Position numbers and translations under genes: made by a program. The notes beneath the pieces are model-generated. The model worked only from the letters and a program-made list of their open reading frames with translations. It was not told the DNA's origin and searched no databases. Positions 11,085-53,019 of a stretch of DNA of 64,000 nucleotides are shown one piece after another. Position 1 is the stretch's first letter; each line of letters opens with the position of its first letter. This DNA comes from Nocardioides sp. GY 10113 (GTDB lineage: Bacteria > Actinomycetota > Actinomycetes > Propionibacteriales > Nocardioidaceae), in the NCBI RefSeq assembly GCF_004919105.1, contig NZ_STGK01000005.1:62001-126000 (forward strand). The letters run 5' to 3'.

Positions 11085-11641
11085 CGCGCACCTCCGGTGG
11101 TGTCGTCGGCGAGTGCGGGGTCGATCCTGAGGTGGGCCAGCGCCTTGTGCAGCTGGCTCTTCACGGTGCCGGTGCTGCACCCCATCACGTGGGCGGTCTC
11201 GGCCACGGAGAGGTCCTCGAAGAAGCGGAGGACCACCACCGCGCGCTGGCGCCGGGGGAGTCGGTCCAGCGCGTCGGCGAGGTCGTGCCGCTCGACGACC
11301 GCGGTGGCGCCGTGATCGCCGTCGGCACCCTCGGGGAGCGTCTCGGTGGGCTGCTCGCCGTGCCAGCGGCGGCCGCGCCAGCCGGCGTAGGTGGTGACCA
11401 GGATCCGGCGCACGTACGGCTCGGGGTGCTTCTCGATCCGGTGCCAGGCGAACCACGCCTTGCTGAGGGCGGTCTGCAGCAGGTCCTCGGCCATGGCGTG
11501 GTCGCGGGTCAGCAGGTAGGCGGTGCGGAGCAGGGCCTGAGCGCGGGCGGCCACGAAGGCCTCGAACTCGACGAGCTGGTCGGCATCGTTCGGCAACGCG
11601 GCCTCCGTTCGTCGGCTCGCGTCGGACGTTCGCAAGGTCAT
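11081..11641 (-). CDS. SigE-family ECF RNA polymerase sigma factor
   Basis: A 186-residue ECF sigma factor of the SigE-like actinobacterial family. Region 2 spans about residues 25-90 (FEAFVAARAQALLRTAYLLT, then DHAMAEDLLQTALSKAW) and region 4 about 120-170 (LPRRQRAVVVLRFFEDLSV, then CSTGTVKSQLHKAL as the helix-turn-helix). ATG 11641 has a GAAGGGG sequence immediately upstream with short spacing, so a slightly later start is possible. It overlaps its downstream membrane-protein partner by 4 nt. The 149-bp gap to cinA should hold its promoter; I saw no clear consensus there. Confidence 0.9.
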   Translation of the reverse strand: MTLRTSDASRRTEAALPNDADQLVEFEAFVAARAQALLRTAYLLTRDHAMAEDLLQTALSKAWFAWHRIEKHPEPYVRRILVTTYAGWRGRRWHGEQPTETLPEGADGDHGATAVVERHDLADALDRLPRRQRAVVVLRFFEDLSVAETAHVMGCSTGTVKSQLHKALAHLRIDPALADDTTGGAR

Positions 11642-41638: not shown

Positions 41639-41776
41639 GATTTAATTCCATTTGGTAATAGTTCGAAATCCGGCCTCCCTAGGTTCATCGCCACCGGGGC
41701 TCGACGCTGCGCCCCTTTGGCACTGCGGCCACCGCTCGACTGCGGTAGCCCGACTGACCGAGAGGGTCGTACCCAC
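41639..41776 (+). promoter_or_regulatory. AT-rich promoter and leader of the urea transport operon
   Basis: A markedly AT-rich patch (41639-41670, including TTTAATTCCATTTGGTAATA) precedes a TAGGTT -10 box (41680-41685). No good -35 is spaced correctly, suggesting activator dependence; GTAAT and GAAAT elements in the patch vaguely recall GlnR half-sites. The leader to GTG 41777 is about 85 nt. Confidence 0.45.
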
Positions 41777-43021
41777 GTGTTCCCATCCCGCTCCCGCTTC
41801 GTCGCGGGCACCGTCCTCGCGCTGACCTCGACGCTCGCGCTCTCCGCGTGCGGCTCCAAGTCCGGAGAGGAGGGCGCGGTCGAGAGCTGCGTCGACACCT
41901 CCGGCGACACCATCAAGCTCGGCTTCCTGAACTCGCTCTCGGGTCCGATGTCGATCAGCGAGACCACGGTCTCCAAGTCGCTGAGCATGGCGGCCGAGGA
42001 GATCAACGCCGACGGCGGCATCCTCGGCAAGGAGATCGACATCGTCCAGGAGGACGGCGCCTCCGAGCCCACCGTCTTCAACGAGAAGGCCCAGAAGCTG
42101 ATCCAGCAGGACTGCGTCGCGGCGGTCTTCGGTGGCTGGACCTCCTCGTCCCGCGTCGCCATGCGGGACACCTTCAAGCAGCTGAACTCGCTGCTGTTCT
42201 ACCCGGTCCAGTACGAGGGCCTGGAGTCGGACCGGAACATCTTCTACACCGGTGCGACCACCAACCAGCAGATCATCCCGGCGCTGGACTTCCTCCGCGA
42301 GGAGAAGAAGATCACGTCGATCTTCCTCGCCGGCTCGGACTACGTGTTCCCGCGCACCGCCAACAAGATCATCAAGCAGTACGCGGCCGAGTACGGCATC
42401 GAGGTCGTCGGCGAGGAGTACCAGCCGCTCGACCAGGGCGCCTGGGGCACCGCGGTGGACAAGATCGTGGCCACCAAGCCCGACGTCGTCTTCAACACGA
42501 TCAACGGCGACTCGAACGTCGCGTTCCTCCAGGCCTACGACGAGAAGGGCCTGAGCGCGAAGAACATCCCGATCGTCTCGGTGTCGATCGCCGAGGAGGA
42601 GGCCGCGGCCATCCCCGTCGACCTCACCGGACAGATGACGTCGTGGAACTACTACCAGACCGTCGACAGCCCGGAGAACAACGAGTTCGTCGCCGCCTTC
42701 AAGGCGAAGTACGGCAAGGACGCGGTGACCTCGGACCCGATGGAGGCGGCGTACACCTCGCTGTACCTGTACAAGGCGATGGTCGAGAAGGCCGACTCCT
42801 TCGACGTGGACAAGGTGATCGAGGCGGCCGGTGGCGTCTCCTTCGAAGCCCCGGAGGGCACCGTCACCGTCAACGGCGAGAACCACCACATCGCCAAGAC
42901 CACGCTGATCGGCCAGGTCAACAAGGACAAGCTGATCGACGTGATCTGGTCCTCGGGCGAGCCGATCGAGCCCGACCCGTACCTCGAGGGCTACGACTGG
43001 TGGGACCCCAGCCAGGAGTGA
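41777..43021 (+). CDS. urtA: Urea ABC transporter substrate-binding lipoprotein
   Basis: A 414-residue periplasmic-binding-type lipoprotein, first gene of urtABCDE. The signal peptide ends LALSACGSK with lipobox Cys25. The mature protein follows UrtA closely: DTIKLGFLNSLSGPMSISET, INADGGILGKEIDIVQEDGASE, AAVFGGWTSSSRVAMRD, LFYPVQYEGLESDRNIFYTG, and GSDYVFPRTANKIIKQY. It captures urea for the UrtBCDE permease. GTG 41777 is chosen because the signal peptide starts there. The long frame extending upstream lies in another frame of the nuclease gene. Confidence 0.96.
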   Translation: MFPSRSRFVAGTVLALTSTLALSACGSKSGEEGAVESCVDTSGDTIKLGFLNSLSGPMSISETTVSKSLSMAAEEINADGGILGKEIDIVQEDGASEPTVFNEKAQKLIQQDCVAAVFGGWTSSSRVAMRDTFKQLNSLLFYPVQYEGLESDRNIFYTGATTNQQIIPALDFLREEKKITSIFLAGSDYVFPRTANKIIKQYAAEYGIEVVGEEYQPLDQGAWGTAVDKIVATKPDVVFNTINGDSNVAFLQAYDEKGLSAKNIPIVSVSIAEEEAAAIPVDLTGQMTSWNYYQTVDSPENNEFVAAFKAKYGKDAVTSDPMEAAYTSLYLYKAMVEKADSFDVDKVIEAAGGVSFEAPEGTVTVNGENHHIAKTTLIGQVNKDKLIDVIWSSGEPIEPDPYLEGYDWWDPSQE

Positions 43022-43132: not shown

Positions 43133-44017
43133 ATGGACGTTGTCATCTCGCAGGTCTTCACCGGTGCCTCGTTCGGCGCCGCGCTCCTCCTCATCTCCCT
43201 CGGCCTCGCCCTCACGTTCGGCCAGATGGGCGTCATCAACATGGCCCACGGCGAATTCGTGATGGCCGGCGCCTACACCGCCTACATGACCCAGCAGGTG
43301 GTCACGAACGCGGACGTCTCGCTGCTGATCGCGATCCCCGTGGCGTTCGTGATCGCCGGACTGCTCGGCGTCCTGCTCGAGGTCACGATCATCCGCTGGA
43401 TGTACGACCGGCCCCTCGACACGCTCCTGGTCACGTTCGGTGTCAGCCTCGTCCTGCAGCAGGCGGCCAAGGACATCTTCGGTGCGCAGGCGGTCGCGGT
43501 CGAGGCGCCCAGCTGGCTGAGCGGCCAGATCGGGATCCTGGGCTACCGCTATCCCTACAGCCAGGCATTCATCCTGGTGCTCGCTCTCGGCTGCCTGGCG
43601 GCGATGGCGTGGCTGATGAAATCGACCGCCTTCGGCCGCCAGATGCGCGCCACGGTGCAGAGCCGCGGCCTGGCGGAGACGGTCGGCGTCTCGACCCGCA
43701 ACGTGGACCGGTTGACCTTCTTCATCGGGTCCGGCCTGGCCGGCATCGCGGGTGTCGCGGTCACCCGGATCACCGCCGTGGAGTCGACGATGGGCCAGGA
43801 GTACATCATCTGGGCCTTCCTGGTGGTCGTCGTCGGCGGCATCGGGCAGATCAAGGGCGCCGTGATCGCGGCGTTCGCGTTCGGCATCCTCCGTTCGTTC
43901 CTCACCTACTTCACCGACGGGAGCATGGCCGTGGTGCTGACCTTCCTGATCGTGGTCGCCTTCCTCCAGGTCCGGCCGCAGGGCCTGTTCGTCGTCCGCA
44001 CGCGGAGCCTCGTATGA
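43133..44017 (+). CDS. urtB: Urea ABC transporter permease UrtB
   Basis: A 294-residue LivH-type permease with about eight transmembrane segments. The family motif GQMGVINMAHGEFVMAGAY occurs at about 30-48, and VVGGIGQIKGAVIAAF near the C-terminus. Together with UrtC it forms the channel of the urea importer. ATG 43133 has an AGGAAGG site about 8 nt upstream. The 111-bp gap after urtA has no clear hairpin. The stop overlaps urtC by 4 nt. Confidence 0.95.
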   Translation: MDVVISQVFTGASFGAALLLISLGLALTFGQMGVINMAHGEFVMAGAYTAYMTQQVVTNADVSLLIAIPVAFVIAGLLGVLLEVTIIRWMYDRPLDTLLVTFGVSLVLQQAAKDIFGAQAVAVEAPSWLSGQIGILGYRYPYSQAFILVLALGCLAAMAWLMKSTAFGRQMRATVQSRGLAETVGVSTRNVDRLTFFIGSGLAGIAGVAVTRITAVESTMGQEYIIWAFLVVVVGGIGQIKGAVIAAFAFGILRSFLTYFTDGSMAVVLTFLIVVAFLQVRPQGLFVVRTRSLV

Positions 44018-45132
44018 GTGCCCCGGAGGCGGCCCCGACGGCCACGGCCACGCGGGCGCTCCGGGCCGCGGCGCCGCTGATCGGCATCGCGGTGCTCGCG
44101 CTGCTGCTCCTGGTGGTGGCTCCCGCGGTCCTCAGCCAGTTCCGGCTGAACAACCTGGGCAAGTACTGCTGCTACGCCATCGCCGCCGTCGGGATCGGCA
44201 TCGCCTGGGGCCGCGGCGGCATGCTGGTGCTCGGCCAGGGGCTCTTCTTCGGCATCGGCGCCTACGCGATGGGCATGCACCTCAAGCTCGAGGCGGCGGA
44301 GTCCACGGGCGGGGTGCCGGACTTCATGCTCAACTTCGGCGACGGCACCCTGCCCGCGTGGTGGGAGCCCTTCCGGAGCGGGGCCTTCACGGTGGCCGCG
44401 ATCATCGTGCTCCCGGCGCTGCTCGCGGCGCTGCTGGGGTTCTCCGTGTTCAAGCGCCGGATCAAGGGTGCGTACTTCGCCATCCTCTCCCAAGCGTTGA
44501 CGGTGGCCTTCGCGGCGCTGCTGGTCTCGCAGATCAAGTACACCGGCGGCCAGACGGGCCTGAACTCGCTCAGCTCGTTCTTCGGCTACAACCTCTACGA
44601 CCCGGCCAACCGGCAGATGCTCTTCTACATCACCGCCGGCCTGCTGATCGCGATGCTGGTGGTCACCTACCAGCTCTACCGCAGCCGCTTCGGCGAGCTG
44701 CTCGTGGCGGTCCGTGACGCCGAGGAGCGGGTCCGCTTCCTCGGCCACGACCCGGCCAACATCAAGGTCGTCGCGTTCGTCGTCGCCGCGATCATGGCCA
44801 GCATCGGCGGCGCCATGTTCGTGCCGCTGGCGGGCCTGATCAACCCGCGCGAGGTCAACGCCCTGGCCTCGATCATGCTGATCGCGGGCGTGGCGCTCGG
44901 CGGACGGGCGGCGCTCCTCGGTCCGGCGCTCGGCGCGCTCGCCGTGGGCTTCGGCAGGACCTACCTCTCGGAGAGCTTCCCCGAGCAGTGGACCTACTTC
45001 CTCGGCGCCCTCTTCATCGTGGTGATCCTCTTCATCCCGGCCGGCCTGGCCTCGGTCCTCCCCCGGCTCTGGGCGCGTTGGCGACCGGCACCGTCCACCC
45101 CGGCCCCGGCCCAGCAGGAGGCTCCCGCATGA
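44014..45132 (+). CDS. urtC: Urea ABC transporter permease UrtC
   Basis: A 372-residue LivM-type permease with about ten hydrophobic segments. Motifs are LGKYCCYAIAAVGIGIAWGRGGMLVLGQG (seen in shorter pieces), SRFGELLVAVRDAEERVRFL, and PREVNALASIMLIAGVALGG. ATG 44014 overlaps the urtB stop (ATGA); an in-frame extension to 43063 runs through urtB and is spurious. The C-terminus is Pro/Ala-rich (STPAPAQQEAPA) and overlaps urtD by 4 nt. Confidence 0.95.
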   Translation: MSAPEAAPTATATRALRAAAPLIGIAVLALLLLVVAPAVLSQFRLNNLGKYCCYAIAAVGIGIAWGRGGMLVLGQGLFFGIGAYAMGMHLKLEAAESTGGVPDFMLNFGDGTLPAWWEPFRSGAFTVAAIIVLPALLAALLGFSVFKRRIKGAYFAILSQALTVAFAALLVSQIKYTGGQTGLNSLSSFFGYNLYDPANRQMLFYITAGLLIAMLVVTYQLYRSRFGELLVAVRDAEERVRFLGHDPANIKVVAFVVAAIMASIGGAMFVPLAGLINPREVNALASIMLIAGVALGGRAALLGPALGALAVGFGRTYLSESFPEQWTYFLGALFIVVILFIPAGLASVLPRLWARWRPAPSTPAPAQQEAPA

Positions 45133-45911
45133 CGCCCAAGATCGCCCCGCCCGACAGCCGCGGACTCGACTACCTGGAGATCACCGGCCTGACGGTCGAC
45201 TTCGACGGCTTCAAGGCCGTCGACGGCGTCGACCTGACCCTCCTCCAGGGCCAGCTGCACTTCCTGATCGGCCCCAACGGCGCCGGCAAGACGACGCTCG
45301 TCGACGCCGTCACCGGGCTGGTCCCGGCGACCGGACGCGCGGAGTACCGGGGGCGCCAGCTGCTCGGCATGAAGTCGCACCGGATCGTTCGGGCCGGGCT
45401 CGGCCGGACCTTCCAGACAGCGACCGTCTTCGAGGAGCTCTCGGTCCTGCAGAACCTCGACATCGCCGGCGGCGTGCACCGCTCCGCGTGGGGCATGCTG
45501 CGCGCCCGTCGCGGGGTGCCGGAGTACGTCCAGGAGGCGATGGAGACCATCGGCCTGTCCGCGCTGGCCGACCGGCCGGCGGGGGTGCTGGCCCACGGGC
45601 AGAAGCAGTGGCTGGAGATCGGGATGCTCCTGGTCCAGGACTCGAAGGTGATGCTGCTCGACGAGCCGGTGGCCGGGATGAGTGCCGAGGAGCGCGCCGA
45701 GACCGGCGACCTGCTGCGCCGGATCGGTGAGGAACGCACGATCGTGGTGATCGAGCACGACATGGACTTCGTCCGGGAGTACGCCGACATCGTCACCGTG
45801 ATGCACGCGGGCAAGGTGCTGACCGAGGGCACGGTGGCCGACATCCAGGCCAACCCCAAGGTCCAGGAGGTCTACCTGGGCCGCACCGCGGAAGGAGCCG
45901 ACCATGCTTGA
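45129..45911 (+). CDS. urtD: Urea ABC transporter ATP-binding protein UrtD
   Basis: A 260-residue LivG-type ATPase. Walker A is GPNGAGKTT, Walker B VMLLDEPVAGM, and the switch His is in VIEHDMDFV. The signature is degenerate, LAHGQKQWLEIGM, as is usual for UrtD. The segment GLGRTFQTATVFEELSVLQN is typical. It energises urea import with UrtE. The ATG overlaps urtC by 4 nt and its own stop overlaps urtE by 8 nt. Confidence 0.95.
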   Translation: MTPKIAPPDSRGLDYLEITGLTVDFDGFKAVDGVDLTLLQGQLHFLIGPNGAGKTTLVDAVTGLVPATGRAEYRGRQLLGMKSHRIVRAGLGRTFQTATVFEELSVLQNLDIAGGVHRSAWGMLRARRGVPEYVQEAMETIGLSALADRPAGVLAHGQKQWLEIGMLLVQDSKVMLLDEPVAGMSAEERAETGDLLRRIGEERTIVVIEHDMDFVREYADIVTVMHAGKVLTEGTVADIQANPKVQEVYLGRTAEGADHA

Positions 45912-46584
45912 GATCAGGGGGGTCACGGCCGGCTACGGCCGATCGATGGTGCTCGACGACGTCGACCTGAAGGTCCCCGAGGGCGGCGCCGTCGCTGTGA
46001 TGGGCCACAACGGGGCCGGCAAGACCACGCTGCTGCGCGTCGCGGTCGGCCTGCTGCCGGTCAGGTCCGGCACCGTGCTGCTCGACGGCGAAGACGTCAC
46101 CGCGATGCGCCCGAGCGCCCGGGTGAAGCGCGGCCTGGGCTACGTGCCGCAGGGGCAGCAGTCCTTCCCCCAGATGACGACCCTCGAGAACCTCCGGCTG
46201 ATCACCACCGACAAGGCGGCGATCGACGACGTCCTCGACACGTTCCCGGCGTTGCGGGGGCTGCTGAGCAGACGCGCCGGCCTGCTGAGCGGCGGCCAGC
46301 GCCAGCAGCTCGCGATCGCGCGCACGCTGCTCACCCAGCCGCGGATGCTGATCCTCGACGAGCCGACCGAGGGCATCCAGCCGAACGTGGTCGCCGAGAT
46401 CGAGGGGGTCATCGTCGACCTGACCAAGCGCGGCGACCTGTCCGTGCTCCTCGTCGAGCAGCACGTCGGGTTCGCGCTGCGCAGCACCGACTCCTACTAC
46501 GTCCTCGAGTCGGGGCGGATCACCACGAGCGGTGCGGGCGGCGACGGAGCCCTGGAGGCCGTTCGAGCGGCGATGGCGGTCTAG
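45904..46584 (+). CDS. urtE: Urea ABC transporter ATP-binding protein UrtE
   Basis: A 226-residue LivF-type ATPase. Walker A is GHNGAGKTT, signature [13 protein letters not shown], Walker [15 protein letters not shown], and the switch region [29 protein letters not shown] is characteristic of UrtE. ATG 45904 overlaps the end of urtD. Urease structural genes follow after 103 bp that contain a separate promoter. Confidence 0.95.
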
Positions 46585-46687: not shown

Positions 46688-46990
46688 ATGTACCTGACTG
46701 GGTCCGACACCGAGAAGCTGCTGCTCAGCGTGGCCGGGATGGTCGCGCGCGACCGTCTGGGTCGCGGCGTGAAGCTCAACTACCCCGAGTCGGTCGCGCT
46801 GCTGTCGTGCTGGGTGATCGAGGAGGCGCGAGCCGGCGCCGGCGTCGCCGAGCTGATGGAGCGCGGACGCGAGGTGCTCACCAGCGACCAGGTGATGCCC
46901 GGCGTGCCGGAGATGGTGGTCGACGTCCAGGTCGAGGCGACCTTCCCCGACGGTCGCAAGCTGGTCACCCTGCACCACCCGATCGCCTGA
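46688..46990 (+). CDS. ureA: Urease subunit gamma
   Basis: A 100-residue UreA. The whole protein follows the family: [60 protein letters not shown], and the ending TLHHPIA. It is part of the (UreABC)3 urease that hydrolyses urea to ammonia and carbamate. ATG 46688 is preceded by AGGAGGAG about 11 nt upstream. A 66-bp gap separates it from ureB. Confidence 0.97.
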
Positions 46991-47056
46991 CCCGGCGTCC
47001 CGACCCGAGTTCCTGATCCCATTGCGCGAGGAGTTCCGACCTGTGAGGAGAGCGGC

Positions 47057-47387
47057 ATGAGCGGCGTCACCGACGGACCGGGCGCGACCCGGACGGCCCC
47101 GGGCACCGTGGTGCTCAACGGCGACCGGAGCGCCGAGGAGCGGGCCACCATCGTGGTCACGAACACCGGCGACCGGCCGGTCCAGATCGGCTCCCACATC
47201 CACCTGCCCGACGCGAACTCGGCTCTGGATCTCGACCGGGCGGCGGCCCACGGCTTCCGGCTCGACATCCCGTCCGGGACGTCGCGGCGCTTCGAGCCCG
47301 GCGCGTCCCAGGAGGTGGCGATCGTCGCCCTCCGCGGCGCTCGGACGGTTCCGGGGATCCAGGTCCGCAACGACGGGGGTGTCCTCG

Positions 47388-47395
<8 letters not shown>
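47057..47395 (+). CDS. ureB: Urease subunit beta
   Basis: A 112-residue UreB. Family segments are [58 protein letters not shown] and [12 protein letters not shown]. The usual YHFFEVN stretch is altered to [11 protein letters not shown]. It packs against UreC in the urease trimer. ATG 47057; its stop overlaps the ureC start by 8 nt, so the two are translated together. Confidence 0.95.
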
Positions 47396-49094
<1,699 letters not shown>

Positions 49095-49105
49095 ACCACG
49101 ACGAG

Positions 49106-49822
49106 ATGGTGCTCGAGGAGATGACGGATCCGGGAGCCCGTGCGGGCGGACCGGGGGCGGGCGGGGTCGATCCCGAGCTGTTCCTGCTGCTGCTCGCGGA
49201 CGCCCGGCTCCCGGTCGGCGGTCACACCCAGTCGGGGACGCTCGAAGGGGCGCTGGCCCACGGGTTGGGCGCGGCGGACGTACCCGGATTCCTGCGCGCC
49301 CGGCTGCTCGGGGTCACCCGGGTCGAGGCCGGCACCGCCGTGGCCGCCCGGGCGGCGGTGCTCTCCGGCGGCTCGCTGGCCGCGGTGGACGACGCGTGGG
49401 CGGCGCGCACCGTGGCGCCTGCGCTGCGCGAGGCCTCGCGCCAGCAGGGTCGGGCGCTGCTGATGGTCGTCGAGCGGATCTGGCCGGCCGCGCTGCCGCC
49501 GCTGGCCGGGCTGGACCGCCCGGCCCGGGCGACCGTGCTCGGGGCCGTCGCCGCGCACCTCGGGCTCGGCGCCGCCACGCTGGCGCGCCTGGTCGCGTAC
49601 GACGACGTGCAGACCGTCTGCGCCGCGGCGCTCAAGCTGGTGCCGCTGGATCCGTTCGTCGTGACCGGCTGGGTGGCGCAGGCGCTGCCCGCCGTGGACG
49701 AGGTGACCCGAGCGGTCGCCGAGGTGACCGACCCGGCCGACGTGCCGGCCGTCGCCGCACCCCAGATCGAGGCGTGGGCGCAGGCCCACGCGACCACCAC
49801 GAGGAGGCTCTTCCGTGCCTGA
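49106..49822 (+). CDS. ureF: Urease accessory protein UreF
   Basis: A 238-residue all-helical UreF, a GTPase-activating partner of UreG in the nickel-loading complex. Motifs are [24 protein letters not shown] near the N-terminus (given in part), [10 protein letters not shown], and [20 protein letters not shown]. The start is ATG 49106; ATG 49121 is in frame and possible. No strong ribosome site is seen 11 nt after the ureC stop. Its stop overlaps the ureG start by 8 nt. Confidence 0.9.
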
Positions 49823-50564
49823 ATCCGTTGCCCACCACTCCGAGGCCTCCCGGCCGCTCCGCCTCGGCGTCTGCGGACCCGTCGGCACCGGGAAGAGCTC
49901 CCTCATCGCCCTGCTCTGCCGTGAGCTGGCGGCCGACTGGAGCCTGGCCGTCGTCACCAACGACATCTACACCGACGAGGACGCCCGGTTCCTGCGCTCG
50001 GCGGGTGTGCTCGCCGAGGACCGGATCCGCGCCGTCGAGACCGGCGCGTGCCCGCACACGGCGATCCGCGACGACATCAGCGCGAACCTCATCGCGGTCC
50101 AGGAGCTCGAGCACGACTACCCGGGGTTGGACGCGGTGCTGCTGGAGTCCGGCGGCGACAACCTCACCGCGACCTTCTCCCCCGCCCTCGTCGACGTCCA
50201 GATCTTCGTGCTCGACGTGGCCGGTGGCGGCGACGTGGCGCGCAAGGGAGGGCCGGGTATCGAGCGGGCCGACCTGCTGGTCGTCAACAAGACCGACCTG
50301 GCGCCGTACGTCGGGGTGGACGTGGCGCGCATGCTCGACGACGCCCGGCGCGCGCGGGGCGATCGCCCGGTGATCGGGCTCTCGCGCTCCGACCGTGCCA
50401 GCATCGATGCGCTCCTCGCCTGGCTCGGCGCGGTCCGGGACCGTCACCGCGAGGGGCACTGGGTGCCGACGGACCCCGGTCCGATGGCCCCGCACTTCCA
50501 CGCCGAGGACCACGAGCACGAGCACGAGCACGCTCACGAGCACGGGCATGCTCACGGACACTGA
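49815..50564 (+). CDS. ureG: Urease accessory GTPase UreG with His-rich C-terminal tail
   Basis: A 249-residue SIMIBI-class GTPase that delivers nickel to urease. Motifs are the P-loop [22 protein letters not shown], the metal-binding [13 protein letters not shown] (Cys-Pro-His), [13 protein letters not shown], and NKTDLAPYV. After about residue 225 the protein ends in a run rich in His and Glu/Asp ([20 protein letters not shown]). Such tails store nickel; more often they are N-terminal in UreG or C-terminal in UreE. No ureE gene is present in this cluster, so the tail may take over that role. GTG 49815 overlaps ureF. Confidence 0.95.
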
Positions 50565-51315
50565 CCGGGTCGCCCGCACCCGACTCCGGGCCACCCTCAC
50601 CGACGCCGGCCGCTGCCGGGTACGCAGCGCCGTCACGCTCTCGGACCCGACCGCGCCCTCGGTGCGGCCGGTGGTGATGACCCAGGAGCGTGCCGCTGCC
50701 CGCGTCTCGCTCGTGCCGGAGGGCGCCCTGTTGCTGGCCGGCGACGCGGTGGAGATCGACGTCGAGGTGGAGGCCGGCGCGCGCCTGGACCTGGTCGAGC
50801 CCGGCGGCACGGTGGCCTACGACATGCGGGGCGCCGCCGCCCGGTGGTCCGTGCGGATCACCCTCGGTCCGGGCGCCGTGCTGACCTGGGCCGGCGAGCC
50901 GTTCGTGGTCTCGGCCGGAGCGTCGGTCGATCGGCGGACCTCGGTGCGCATGGCCGACGGCGCGGCGCTCGCGCTGCGGGAGACCTTGGTGCTCGGCCGG
51001 TACGGCGAGCCGCCCGGACGGATCACCCAGCGCACCGACGTGACCGTGGCCGGCCGCCCGGCACTGGTCGAGGAGATGCCACTGGACCCGACCACCGCGC
51101 CGCTGCTGCTGGGCGGTCACCGGGTGGTCGGCGCGGTGCTCGCGGTCGGAGGCGCGGCCGCCGGCGGACCGGTCGGTCCCGAGCGGGACCGGTACCTCCT
51201 CGAGCGCGGCGGCGCGTTGTGGCGCAGGCTCGGCTGCGAGGCTCACGAGGCCGACCTCGGCGAGGCGTGGCGGGCCGCGGTGGCGGCGGCCGGGGAACCG
51301 GCGTGGGTCCCCTAG
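50548..51315 (+). CDS. ureD: Urease accessory protein UreD/UreH
   Basis: A 255-residue UreD (UreH), the scaffold that recruits UreF and UreG to apo-urease. Recognisable parts are [38 protein letters not shown] and [17 protein letters not shown]. The family is weakly conserved. ATG 50548 overlaps the His-tail coding region of ureG by 17 nt, so tail codons double as the start of ureD. It ends with a TAG that forms the base of a symmetrical hairpin shared with the next, convergent gene. Confidence 0.9.
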
Positions 51316-51363
51316 GGCGGGAGCCCGCGGGTGCGGCCCGACGAGGCGCCGGGCCCGCCCTAG
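51312..51363. terminator. Symmetrical bidirectional terminator with both stop codons in the stem
   Basis: CTAGGGCGGG (51312-51321) and CCCGCCCTAG (51354-51363) are perfectly complementary, with further GC-rich pairing inside. The ureD TAG and the TAG of the convergent receptor-like gene sit at mirror positions in the stem. Confidence 0.7.
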
Positions 51364-52448
51364 CGTGCGCGGGCGATCTGGTCGGTGATCCGGAACTCCA
51401 GTCCGTCTGCCTCGGCGAGATAGACGTCCTGGTCGACCAGGTTGCCGTCCAGCCGCATCAGGCCGCGTGGGCTGGAGTAGAAGTGGCCCGTCTCCAGGCG
51501 GGCGACCGACTCCATGGAGACCGACCCGCACACCTCGCCCAGCCGGGCGAGGAAGAGCAGTGCCTCGTAGCAGGACTCTCCCACGGCGTTGAGCGCGGGC
51601 GCCCAGGCTCCCCAGCGCCCGTAGTAGGCCGCGGCCAGCTCCGAGCTCTCGCTGGTGCGCAGCGAGTCGAAGTAGGCGGCAGCGGCGTAGAGGCCCTCGT
51701 GCGCGCCGGCTCCGCCGGCCAGCAGGGTGTTCTCCTCGACCGCGGGGCTGAGGCGGGGCATCTGGACGGCCAGGCCCGAGCGCGCGAACTGGCGGTTGAA
51801 GTGCACGGCGTCCTGACCCATCAGCAGCATGATCACGCCGTCCACGGGCTGGTCGTTGAGCCGGGCCAGTACGCCGCTGAAGTCGCTCGTGCCCAGCGGC
51901 ACGTAGGTCTCGCTGACGACCTGGGAGTCCGTGCCCTCCAGGGCCAGCCGGGCGGTGGTCCCGGTGACACGGGGGAAGACGTAGTCGTTGCCGACGATCG
52001 CCCAGCGCCCGACGCCGAGCTCACGGCGCATCCAGTGGGCGGCGGGCAGGAGCTGGTTGATCGGGCGCTCGCCGAGCATGAAGACGCCCGGCGTCTCGTC
52101 GCCGCCCTCGTGCATGGCGGCGAAGGCGTAGACCACACGACCGCCGACGCGGCGGGTGATGGCCTGGCGCACCGCGGAGATGTGCCAGCCGGCGACCGCC
52201 TGCACGCGGCCGGTGTCGACCAGCGCGCCGACCTCGTCGGCGACCACCTCCGGGTCGCGACCGCCGTCCACGATCACCAGCTCGACCTCCCGGCCCGCGA
52301 TGCCGCGGCCGGCGTTCAGCTGCTCCACGGCCAGCTCGCCGCAGGCCAGGCACGAGGGGCCGTAGATGCCGGTCGGTCCCTGCAACGGTACGACGAACGC
52401 GATCGCGAGCGTCCGGGCGGCGCGCAGCGCCGCGTACGTCTCGGCCAC
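51360..52448 (-). CDS. Cytosolic urea/amide-binding-protein homologue (AmiC/UrtA fold)
   Basis: A 362-residue periplasmic-binding-fold protein of the UrtA/AmiC/FmdD type. Segments include FVVPLQGPTGIYGPSCLACG, LNAGRGIAGREVELVIVDGG, VGNDYVFPRVTGTTARLALE and YVPLGTSDFSGVLARL, the last two parallel to UrtA. There is no signal peptide or lipobox, so it stays in the cytosol, like the amide sensor AmiC. It could sense urea or a short-chain amide and control the adjacent genes, which is inference. GTG 52448 has GGAGG about 4 nt upstream. It is divergent from a MarR-type regulator and convergent with ureD. Confidence 0.82.
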   Translation of the reverse strand: MAETYAALRAARTLAIAFVVPLQGPTGIYGPSCLACGELAVEQLNAGRGIAGREVELVIVDGGRDPEVVADEVGALVDTGRVQAVAGWHISAVRQAITRRVGGRVVYAFAAMHEGGDETPGVFMLGERPINQLLPAAHWMRRELGVGRWAIVGNDYVFPRVTGTTARLALEGTDSQVVSETYVPLGTSDFSGVLARLNDQPVDGVIMLLMGQDAVHFNRQFARSGLAVQMPRLSPAVEENTLLAGGAGAHEGLYAAAAYFDSLRTSESSELAAAYYGRWGAWAPALNAVGESCYEALLFLARLGEVCGSVSMESVARLETGHFYSSPRGLMRLDGNLVDQDVYLAEADGLEFRITDQIARAR

Positions 52449-52605
52449 GGGACCTCCGTGGGGCAACGGTGGGCACGGCCGGCGACATTGCGGGCGCGTG
52501 GGACAACCGAGCGAACAGGTCTCGCCTACGATAGGGCCGGCCGGACCGCACCGTCGCGGGCTTCTCACGAATGTGACGCACGACCGGAGCGAGCGAGGTG
52601 ACCCG

Positions 52606-53019
52606 ATGCAGTCCCTGAGCGCGGAGGAGGCCACGGTGGCCGATCCGGCTGACGCCAACCCCGGCACGCCGAGCCTGGCTGTCCGGGTGCGTCAGGTCGA
52701 GGCGGCGCTGCGCGAGGTGCTGCAGCCGGTCCTCGACGAGCACGGACTCACACTCGAGCACTGGCGGATCCTCGCCGTGGTCGACGCCGACCCGGGACTC
52801 GGGATGAGCGAGGTGGCCACCCTGGCGGTGGTCCCGGCCGCGTCGCTGACCCGGCACATGGACCGGCTGGTCGAGCGCGCGCTGGTGGTCCGCCGGATCG
52901 ACCCGGCGGACAGGCGTCGGGCCGTGGTCGCCCTCTCCCCGCTCGGCCGCGACTACGCGGCCCGGCTGCTTGCCGCGGAGCGGAGCGCCACCCTGCCGGT
53001 CGCGACCCCGACAGCCTGA
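52606..53019 (+). CDS. MarR-family transcriptional regulator
   Basis: A 137-residue MarR-type winged-helix regulator. The DNA-binding domain reads HGLTLEHWRILAVVDADPG, MSEVATLAVVPAASLTRHMD and the wing RRIDPADRRRAVVALSPLG. It begins with ATG 52606 about 5 nt after a GAGGTG sequence. The 157-bp divergent region to the receptor-like gene contains TACGAT (52527-52532), a possible -10 box. Partnership with the cytosolic binding protein is suggested by their divergent arrangement only. Confidence 0.87.
   Translation: MQSLSAEEATVADPADANPGTPSLAVRVRQVEAALREVLQPVLDEHGLTLEHWRILAVVDADPGLGMSEVATLAVVPAASLTRHMDRLVERALVVRRIDPADRRRAVVALSPLGRDYAARLLAAERSATLPVATPTA

What the first reader, a model, noticed from the sequence alone, without database searches (positions are those of the whole stretch)
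51360..53019. Signal-peptide-less UrtA/AmiC-like receptor divergent from a MarR regulator next to urease
The protein shares segments with UrtA but is cytosolic, like the amide sensor AmiC that controls amidase expression by sequestering a partner. Divergent MarR plus convergent urease genes suggest a two-part urea or amide sensing device that has not, to my knowledge, been described.
Basis: inference. Interest (0 to 1): 0.55.

Follow-up and report, generated by a model that had tools for sequence, protein, structure and literature searches.

The report
Cytosolic urea/amide receptor–MarR pair beside urease
Next to the urea-uptake and urease genes of a Nocardioides-like bacterium lie a receptor protein that seems to stay inside the cell and a partner gene switch; the two are kept together beside urease in related bacteria and most likely help turn urea use on, as similar couples probably do for amides.

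Summary
A 362-aa Peripla_BP_6 protein without a visible export signal (51360-52448, -) is divergent from a 137-aa MarR protein (52606-53019, +) and converges on urtABCDE-ureABCFGD. The pair is real: in 58 relatives (own genome included) the receptor orthologue and its close MarR partner occur in exactly the same 16, all urease-positive (0 of 33 urease-negative). In 48 of 48 urease-linked loci MarR is adjacent and divergent, although the pair sits in three different positions around the urease genes. More distant receptors are also paired with MarR, many beside aliphatic amidase, some beside formamidase, one beside nitrile hydratase. A tree separates these receptors from UrtA; the predicted fold matches urea-binding proteins, UrtA and AmiC. 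Ser/Glu/Tyr of UrtA's urea pocket are kept, Gln144 and Asn246 are not, and the urease-linked clade has its own pocket residues. Best reading: a cytosolic AmiC-like receptor that controls a MarR repressor of urea uptake and urease. The kind is not new (amide-responsive AmiC systems; M. smegmatis acetamidase; Rhodococcus nitrile hydratase regulators, recalled); the urease-linked clade seems undescribed in the open papers searched. Ligand, contact and sign are inferred.

The parts
51360..52448 (-). signal-less Peripla_BP_6 receptor (AmiC/UrtA-like), 362 aa, GTG start
52449..52605 (.). 157-nt divergent region between receptor and marR; a -10-like CCTA(G/C)GATAG is conserved in close relatives; operator not identified
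52606..53019 (+). MarR-family regulator, 137 aa, partner gene
41777..43021 (+). urtA, exported urea-binding protein of the ABC transporter (comparison protein)
   Evidence: TIGR03407 504.3 bits, cut-off 492.75
43133..46584 (+). urtB, urtC, urtD, urtE (43133-44017, about 44014-45132, 45129-45911, 45904-46584)
   Evidence: urtB and urtE by Pfam
46688..51315 (+). ureA (46688-46990), ureB (47057-47395), ureC (47379-49094), ureF (about 49117-49822), ureG (49815-50564), ureD (about 50548-51315)
   Evidence: ureA, B, C, G, D by Pfam
41642..41668 (+). conserved block upstream of urtA (TTAATTCCATTTGGTAATAGTTCGAAA), single copy in the genome within 3 mismatches; candidate cis element, regulator unknown
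41679..41715 (+). -10-like CTAGGTT (41679-41685) and the place of a dyad seen in most relatives (41696-41715 here, imperfect); candidate operator or 5' UTR hairpin

Best explanation
The two genes encode a cytosolic ligand receptor and its MarR-family DNA-binding partner. MarR represses (inferred) the urea uptake/urease genes and the divergent receptor/marR promoters; when urea, or a close amide-like compound, enters the cell and closes the receptor, the receptor's effect on MarR changes and repression is lifted. Shown here: both genes, no export signal, the conserved pairing, the link of this receptor clade to urease, the predicted fold and the partly conserved urea/amide pocket. Inferred: ligand (urea about 50-55%), direct receptor-MarR contact, sign of regulation and target promoters.
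For: The same 16 of 58 relatives hold a receptor orthologue (E<1e-70), the close MarR match (E<=2.1e-20) and urease alpha; 9 of 58 have urease without the pair, 0 of 58 the pair without urease (Fisher 2.6e-8, kinship not corrected). Of 15 such loci fetched besides the window, 6 have the receptor converging on ureD, 3 have MarR leading into urtA, 6 have MarR upstream of ureABC without urtA-D, in L038 with an NCS1-like permease gene between. 47 of 47 named orthologue loci (some the same genomes as among the 58) have MarR and urease genes in the held stretch; 48 of 48 urease-linked loci including the window are divergent. Urease-linked receptors form one clade of 48 rows, SH-aLRT 99, apart from UrtA, SH-aLRT 100 (quick tree). 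Relatives paired with MarR lie by aliphatic amidase, formamidase, nitrile hydratase. Fold: pLDDT 92.4; TM 0.88-0.90 to a urea-binding protein, 0.86-0.88 to UrtA, 0.83-0.85 to AmiC. UrtA's Ser122, Glu146, Tyr190 (PMC10392092 passages) are kept in 108 of 108 receptors compared. M. smegmatis acetamidase is controlled by AmiC (positive), AmiD (positive) and AmiA (negative) (PMC12719403 passages).
Against: Two of the four residues that hydrogen-bond urea in UrtA (Gln144, Asn246) are Met in the urease-linked clade and mostly Leu and Val/Leu in the others, so UrtA-like urea binding is not predicted. No operator shared by the receptor/marR region and the urtA promoter was found. No data on binding, contact or expression. 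9 urease-positive relatives do without the pair. Of 108 rows with a MarR match, 6 are not divergent (3 same strand, 3 convergent), and so is L163; all lie outside the urease clade. Of 61 non-urease rows, 16 had none of the queried enzymes or permeases in the held stretch and 9 only an NCS1-like permease (many stretches are only 4 kb).
Confidence: 0.7

Rival explanations
1. Same two-part switch, but the ligand is not urea: a short amide, formamide or a ureide whose breakdown feeds urease.
For: The pocket lacks Gln144 and Asn246 of UrtA and in that respect resembles the amidase/formamidase-linked receptors. Kribbella-type loci and a sister lineage (G105) have an NCS1-like permease gene beside the pair, in G105 with no urease match in the 20 kb fetched; NCS1 permeases usually carry nucleobases or allantoin (recalled).
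Against: The urease-linked clade is one clade, in every locus examined beside urease genes, and has its own residues at 3 of 9 urea-contact positions (P 0.015, shared descent not corrected), as expected if the ligand changed together with the enzyme.
Confidence: 0.25
2. The two genes are only neighbours: MarR answers to its own small molecule and the receptor has another cytosolic role (for example urea buffering or help to urease).
For: No contact data; many MarR proteins bind ligands directly (recalled).
Against: Pairing holds over 106 distinct loci from Actinomycetota and, on plasmids, Pseudomonadota, with different enzymes next door, mostly divergent and within about 0.4 kb between the matches.
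Confidence: 0.1
3. AmiC/AmiR-type antitermination: the receptor controls an ANTAR protein.
For: Fold and lack of an export signal as in AmiC.
Against: The adjacent partner is a winged-helix MarR; the genome has one ANTAR match, on another contig.
Confidence: 0.03
4. An exported second urea-binding protein of the Urt transporter whose signal was missed.
For: UrtA-like sequence, urt genes close by.
Against: No signal in the window protein or in 64 relatives by eye; score 151.7 against the UrtA cut-off 492.75; Kribbella-type loci show no urtA-D match in the held stretch.
Confidence: 0.03

Closest known systems
Pseudomonas aeruginosa AmiC/AmiR (amidase operon)
   Same: AmiC has the same fold (1pea, TM 0.84-0.85, 24% identity) and is an amide receptor that controls amidase genes; AmiC-AmiR complex described in PMC13209695 (passages).
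   Different: AmiR is an ANTAR protein (recalled), an RNA-binding antiterminator; here the partner gene is MarR and the enzyme urease.
Mycobacterium smegmatis acetamidase regulon amiC/amiA
   Same: AmiC positive and AmiA negative regulator; a vector with a regulon minimised by deleting amiD and amiS is in use (PMC12719403, passages).
   Different: Acetamide and acetamidase. The amiC and amiA sequences were not reached or compared here, and that AmiA is MarR-like was not verified.
Rhodococcus nitrile hydratase regulators (nhhC/nhhD type)
   Same: In Rhodococcus sp. M8 a 44%-identical receptor and a MarR gene lie beside nitrile hydratase nthBA; a Rhizobium rhizogenes homologue is annotated 'nitrile hydratase regulator'. 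Amide induction through AmiC-like NhhC and MarR-like NhhD in R. rhodochrous J1 is recalled, from no call.
   Different: Receptor and MarR genes convergent in M8; enzyme is nitrile hydratase.
UrtA (TIGR03407)
   Same: Same fold; Ser122, Glu146, Tyr190 kept.
   Different: No export signal, far below the family cut-off, lacks Trp120/Gln144/Asn246; separate branch in the tree.

Membership tests
UrtA urea ABC-transporter binding protein (TIGR03407) | score over the curated cut-off | tested here: not met
   151.7 bits against 492.75
UrtA urea ABC-transporter binding protein (TIGR03407) | export signal/lipobox | tested here: not met
   inspection by eye, window and 64 loci; no signal predictor available
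UrtA urea ABC-transporter binding protein (TIGR03407) | urea-bonding Ser122, Gln144, Tyr190, Asn246 | tested here: not met
   Ser and Tyr kept, Gln and Asn replaced by Met in 48 of 48 urease-linked receptors
AmiC/AmiR amide-responsive antitermination | AmiC-fold receptor without export signal | tested here: met
AmiC/AmiR amide-responsive antitermination | adjacent ANTAR (AmiR) partner | tested here: not met
   adjacent partner is MarR; the only ANTAR match is on another contig
AmiC-like receptor + MarR gene pairs (amidase, formamidase, nitrile hydratase loci) | homologous receptor, distinct from UrtA | tested here: met
   tree: 109 receptor rows apart from 7 UrtA, SH-aLRT 100; His at position 89 in 108 of 108 receptors compared, Trp in 28 of 29 UrtA
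AmiC-like receptor + MarR gene pairs (amidase, formamidase, nitrile hydratase loci) | adjacent MarR gene | tested here: met
   108 of 109 rows, the window among them, at E<=1e-4; L124, the one left out, matched at 2.7e-5 in a smaller search
AmiC-like receptor + MarR gene pairs (amidase, formamidase, nitrile hydratase loci) | usual but not defining: an amide- or nitrile-using enzyme next door | tested here: not met
   urease instead; that is the variant. Not every other pair has such an enzyme in the stretch seen either
AmiC-like receptor + MarR gene pairs (amidase, formamidase, nitrile hydratase loci) | ligand-dependent regulation | not testable with these tools
   needs binding and expression assays
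MarR family (PF12802/PF01047) | MarR winged-helix domain over cut-off | tested here: met
   46.5 bits (cut-off 27) and 33.5 (24.6); the single-sequence model was poor (pLDDT 49.4) and not used

The most novel reading that the evidence does not exclude
The urease-linked clade is a dedicated intracellular urea sensor: a periplasmic-type urea/amide binding fold used in the cytosol, its pocket re-cut for urea at the concentrations found inside the cell, and coupled to a MarR repressor, giving Nocardioidaceae and Kribbella a substrate-specific switch for urea uptake and urease.
Probability: 0.45. Interest if true: 0.6.

Novelty: new variant of a known kind. Interest (0 to 1): 0.45.

Why it matters
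In Actinomycetota urease is described as part of general nitrogen control: AmtR regulates urease genes in C. glutamicum, and urease genes rise on nitrogen limitation in M. smegmatis (PMC4617892, passages). A substrate-specific switch built from a re-used transport-type protein would add a second layer, would give a modular receptor family whose neighbour enzyme hints at the ligand (urea, formamide, acetamide, nitrile-derived amides), and could yield genetically encoded urea or amide sensors.

Tried and rejected
Operator search: dyads in the receptor/marR region and upstream of urtA. A strongly conserved block and, in most loci, a dyad lie upstream of urtA, but I did not see the same dyad in the receptor/marR region. 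In one search, 17 promoters were scored (L059 was not, its -10-like pattern was not found); in 14 of 17, shuffled sequence reached the dyad score in more than 5% of trials. In L051 and L062 the best dyad is not the common one (in L062 the script's -10 pattern hit further upstream), and in the window it is a longer imperfect one about the same centre. Of the nine pair-less urease relatives only G027 (L047) shows urtA in the stretch fetched, so the lack of the block there proves little; L113, where only receptor remnants were seen in the held stretch, keeps the block with changes. The element could as well serve a nitrogen regulator. Not claimed as the MarR site.

M. smegmatis was not reached by name; genus searches around G145 (28 genomes) and G248 (18 genomes) did not help, so AmiC/AmiA could not be compared by sequence. 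MarR structure: poor model, discarded. AmiR-type partner and exported-protein readings disfavoured. Papers: in the listings of ten searches (titles and starts of abstracts) I saw none on a receptor-MarR pair at urease; the library holds open-licence papers only and lists were capped, so this is weak evidence of absence. No paper on nitrile hydratase regulators was found (the passages of PMC7193024 seen do not treat regulation).

Full report
What is there. The window is a stretch of genome G000 (contig C31, bases 62001-126000), Nocardioides-like judging by its nearest named receptor relatives. At 51360-52448 on the minus strand lies a 362-aa protein with a GTG start and a GGAGGT ribosome site. 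It matches Peripla_BP_6 (3.5e-68) and, far below the curated cut-off, the UrtA family (151.7 against 492.75 bits). At 52606-53019 on the plus strand lies a 137-aa MarR protein. The 157-nt gap is a divergent region. The receptor converges on a complete urtABCDE-ureABCFGD run, whose own UrtA (41777-43021) begins with a lipoprotein-like signal and passes the UrtA cut-off (504.3 bits). No such signal is seen, by eye, in the receptor or in the N-terminal stretches of 64 relatives. A signal predictor was not available.

The pair is real. In the same 58 relatives (own genome included) I searched the receptor, the MarR and urease alpha. A receptor orthologue (E<1e-70) occurs in 16 of 58 (one, G022, only as three pieces in different frames). 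The close MarR match (E 2.1e-20 or better) falls in exactly these 16, next to the receptor; the best MarR match elsewhere is 1.1e-11. Urease alpha over the cut-off occurs in 25 of 58, among them all 16; 9 of 58 have urease without the pair (G003, G018, G024, G027, G029, G037, G044, G045, G047) and none has the pair without urease (Fisher 2.6e-8; kinship is not corrected, and the 16 come from two genera). Of 15 such loci fetched besides the window, 6 have the window's layout (L032-L037), 3 have MarR leading into urtA (L044-L046), and 6, from the 8-Mb genus that matches Kribbella records, have MarR upstream of ureABCFGD without urtA-D (L038-L043). In L038 an NCS1-like permease gene lies between, and so it does in the 17 named loci of this layout (in L073 about 4 kb separate it from marR). 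Keeping company through rearrangement is the strongest sign of shared function. N. immobilis has two contigs, each with the full cluster plus the pair (L049, L053).

Wider kin. A scan of named genomes, seeded by short peptides of the window protein and so biased to close kin, gave 65 loci; several are the same genomes as among the 58. In 47 of them (L049-L095, 70-85% identical; Nocardioides, Pimelobacter, Aeromicrobium, Kribbella, a few MAGs and others) MarR is adjacent and urease genes lie in the held stretch (L082, a 6.4-kb contig, shows ureD and ureG only). In 17 (L096-L112, 41-48%; Williamsia, Solirubrobacter, Streptomyces, Pseudonocardia, Actinomycetospora, Nocardia, Rhodococcus) MarR is also adjacent and no urease gene was matched; neighbours are aliphatic amidase (L096, L097, L099, L101, L109), formamidase (L098, L100, L102), an NCS1-type permease alone (L103, L104, L106-L108), or none of those queried (L105, L110-L112). 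L113 was a UrtA match with receptor remnants and was left out of later counts. In the window's genus, G014 has a second, 43-44%-identical pair, its MarR gene followed by a gene of the acetamidase/formamidase family (L048; PF03069 6.5e-135, below the NCBIfam formamidase cut-off). In 201 genomes of the family of G058 (Nocardia camponoti), 56 have a relative at E<=1e-50; the 30 loci returned all have a MarR match beside the receptor, 27 divergent and 3 on the same strand. Of 12 longer stretches that I chose, 11 have an aliphatic amidase gene near by and one an acetamidase/formamidase-family gene; one (L163) has MarR on the same strand. In plasmids, 73 records match at 1e-40; the 8 I opened all have an annotated MarR gene next to the receptor (5 divergent, 3 convergent): nitrile hydratase in Rhodococcus sp. 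M8, aliphatic amidase in R. rhodochrous pNit, R. qingshengii and M. arabiense, amidase with AmiS/UreI in a C. glutamicum plasmid, amidase in Caballeronia, an amidase about 4 kb off in Aminobacter pBAM1, an ABC transporter in a Klebsiella plasmid. Over 109 receptor rows (106 distinct loci; L102/L123, L150/L161 and L152/L166 are repeats) 108 have a MarR match at E<=1e-4: 48 of 48 urease-linked ones divergent; of the other 60, 54 divergent, 3 same strand, 3 convergent. L124, the one without, matched at 2.7e-5 in the smaller search. Of the 61 non-urease rows, 29 had aliphatic amidase, 7 an acetamidase/formamidase-family gene, 9 only an NCS1-like permease and 16 none of these in the held stretch, which is often only 4 kb (nitrile hydratase and other amidases were not among the queries).

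Tree. A quick maximum-likelihood tree of 109 receptors and 7 UrtA proteins (LG+G4, SH-aLRT only, several long branches flagged, rooted on UrtA) separates UrtA from all receptors (100) and puts the urease-linked receptors into one clade of 48 rows (99; the one row labelled 'other' in it is L082, see above). The urease label needs 2 changes against 36.8 in shuffles. Next to that clade (support 86) stands G105 with receptor, MarR and an NCS1-like permease and no urease match in 20 kb.

Fold and pocket. The AlphaFold model from 23 sequences is confident (pLDDT 92.4, pTM 0.91). Nearest solved structures are a periplasmic urea-binding protein (8tg1, TM 0.88-0.90), UrtA (0.86-0.88) and AmiC (0.83-0.85) (by sequence). 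In P. marinus UrtA nine residues line the urea: Trp120, Ser122, Tyr141, Gln144, Glu146, Tyr190, Phe192, Asn246, Ser274, with hydrogen bonds from Ser122, Gln144, Tyr190, Asn246 (PMC10392092, passages). By the alignments I place His89, Ser91, Phe109, Met112, Glu114, Tyr156, Phe158, Met210, Ala236 of the receptor there. The comparison took 48 urease-linked receptors, 60 others (the three repeats included, L151 left out of both) and 29 UrtA. His89, Ser91, Glu114 and Tyr156 are invariant in 108 of 108 receptors; UrtA has Trp at the His89 place in 28 of 29. The urease-linked clade differs from the others at Gln144 (Met 48 of 48; others Leu 45, Met 2 of 60), Asn246 (Met 48 of 48; others Val 37, Leu 20, Ile 3), Ser274 (Ala 47 of 48; others Leu 45, Ala 4 of 60) and Phe192 (Phe 31, Tyr 17; others Trp 60 of 60). 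By a strict rule (at least 90% in one group, at most 10% in the other) 23 of 362 positions discriminate, 3 of them among the nine (P 0.015; shared descent not corrected). So the site looks like a remodelled small-amide/urea pocket, but it is not UrtA's urea site: half of the urea-bonding set is missing. This is the main reason why I put urea as ligand at only about one half.

How it probably works. AmiC is an amide receptor that acts on a partner regulator (PMC13209695, passages). In M. [quoted passage not shown] By analogy MarR is the repressor and the liganded receptor lifts repression. In the window's layout marR is 10 kb from the urtA promoter and would have to act in trans. The region upstream of urtA holds a block conserved in 16 loci compared and found once in this genome within 3 mismatches, followed in most by a dyad near the likely start of transcription, but I could not tie either to MarR. 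Direct contact, sign, targets and ligand are inference.

Known or new. The kind is known: AmiC-type amide regulation is published, and homologous receptor-MarR pairs sit by amidase and nitrile hydratase genes; one homologue carries the deposited name 'nitrile hydratase regulator'. I recall, from no call, that AmiC-like and MarR-like genes (nhhC, nhhD) regulate nitrile hydratase in R. rhodochrous J1. The papers on M. smegmatis amiA and amiC themselves were not held, nor that on the minimised regulon, so that AmiA is MarR-like is unverified. In the listings of my ten searches I saw no paper on the pair at urease. The urease-linked clade, with its own pocket residues and its link to urease in every locus examined, is therefore best called a new variant of a known kind, of moderate interest and easily tested.

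Noticed in passing
L038:11152-12852 and the other Kribbella-type loci: Between marR and ureA lies a 566-aa NCS1-like permease with a C-terminal CxxC zinc-ribbon-like tail and no Pfam or NCBIfam match at 0.001; a candidate urea permease, also beside the pair in G105 without urease near by.
   Followed up: partly
window 41642-41715: Strongly conserved urtA promoter block plus, in most relatives, a dyad after the -10-like box whose two arms vary in step; regulator unknown.
   Followed up: partly
L046 (G022): Receptor lies in three pieces in different frames and urtC in two, in one contig; either sequencing indels or a decaying cluster.
   Followed up: no
L113 (Nocardioides pelophilus) 11387-11631: urt-ure cluster with only short receptor remnants after ureD and no MarR match in the held stretch: the pair may be being lost there.
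   Followed up: no
L049 and L053 (Nocardioides immobilis): Two contigs each carry a full urt-ure cluster with its own receptor-MarR pair.
   Followed up: no
L096 3506-7187; L170 and L173: Two tubulin-like genes (weak Pfam matches in Williamsia, annotated as such on Rhodococcus plasmids) lie near amidase-linked receptor-MarR pairs.
   Followed up: no
L079 (MAG labelled Lysobacterales): Receptor 71% identical but ureC only 64%: the pair beside a different urease, or a misbinned contig.
   Followed up: no
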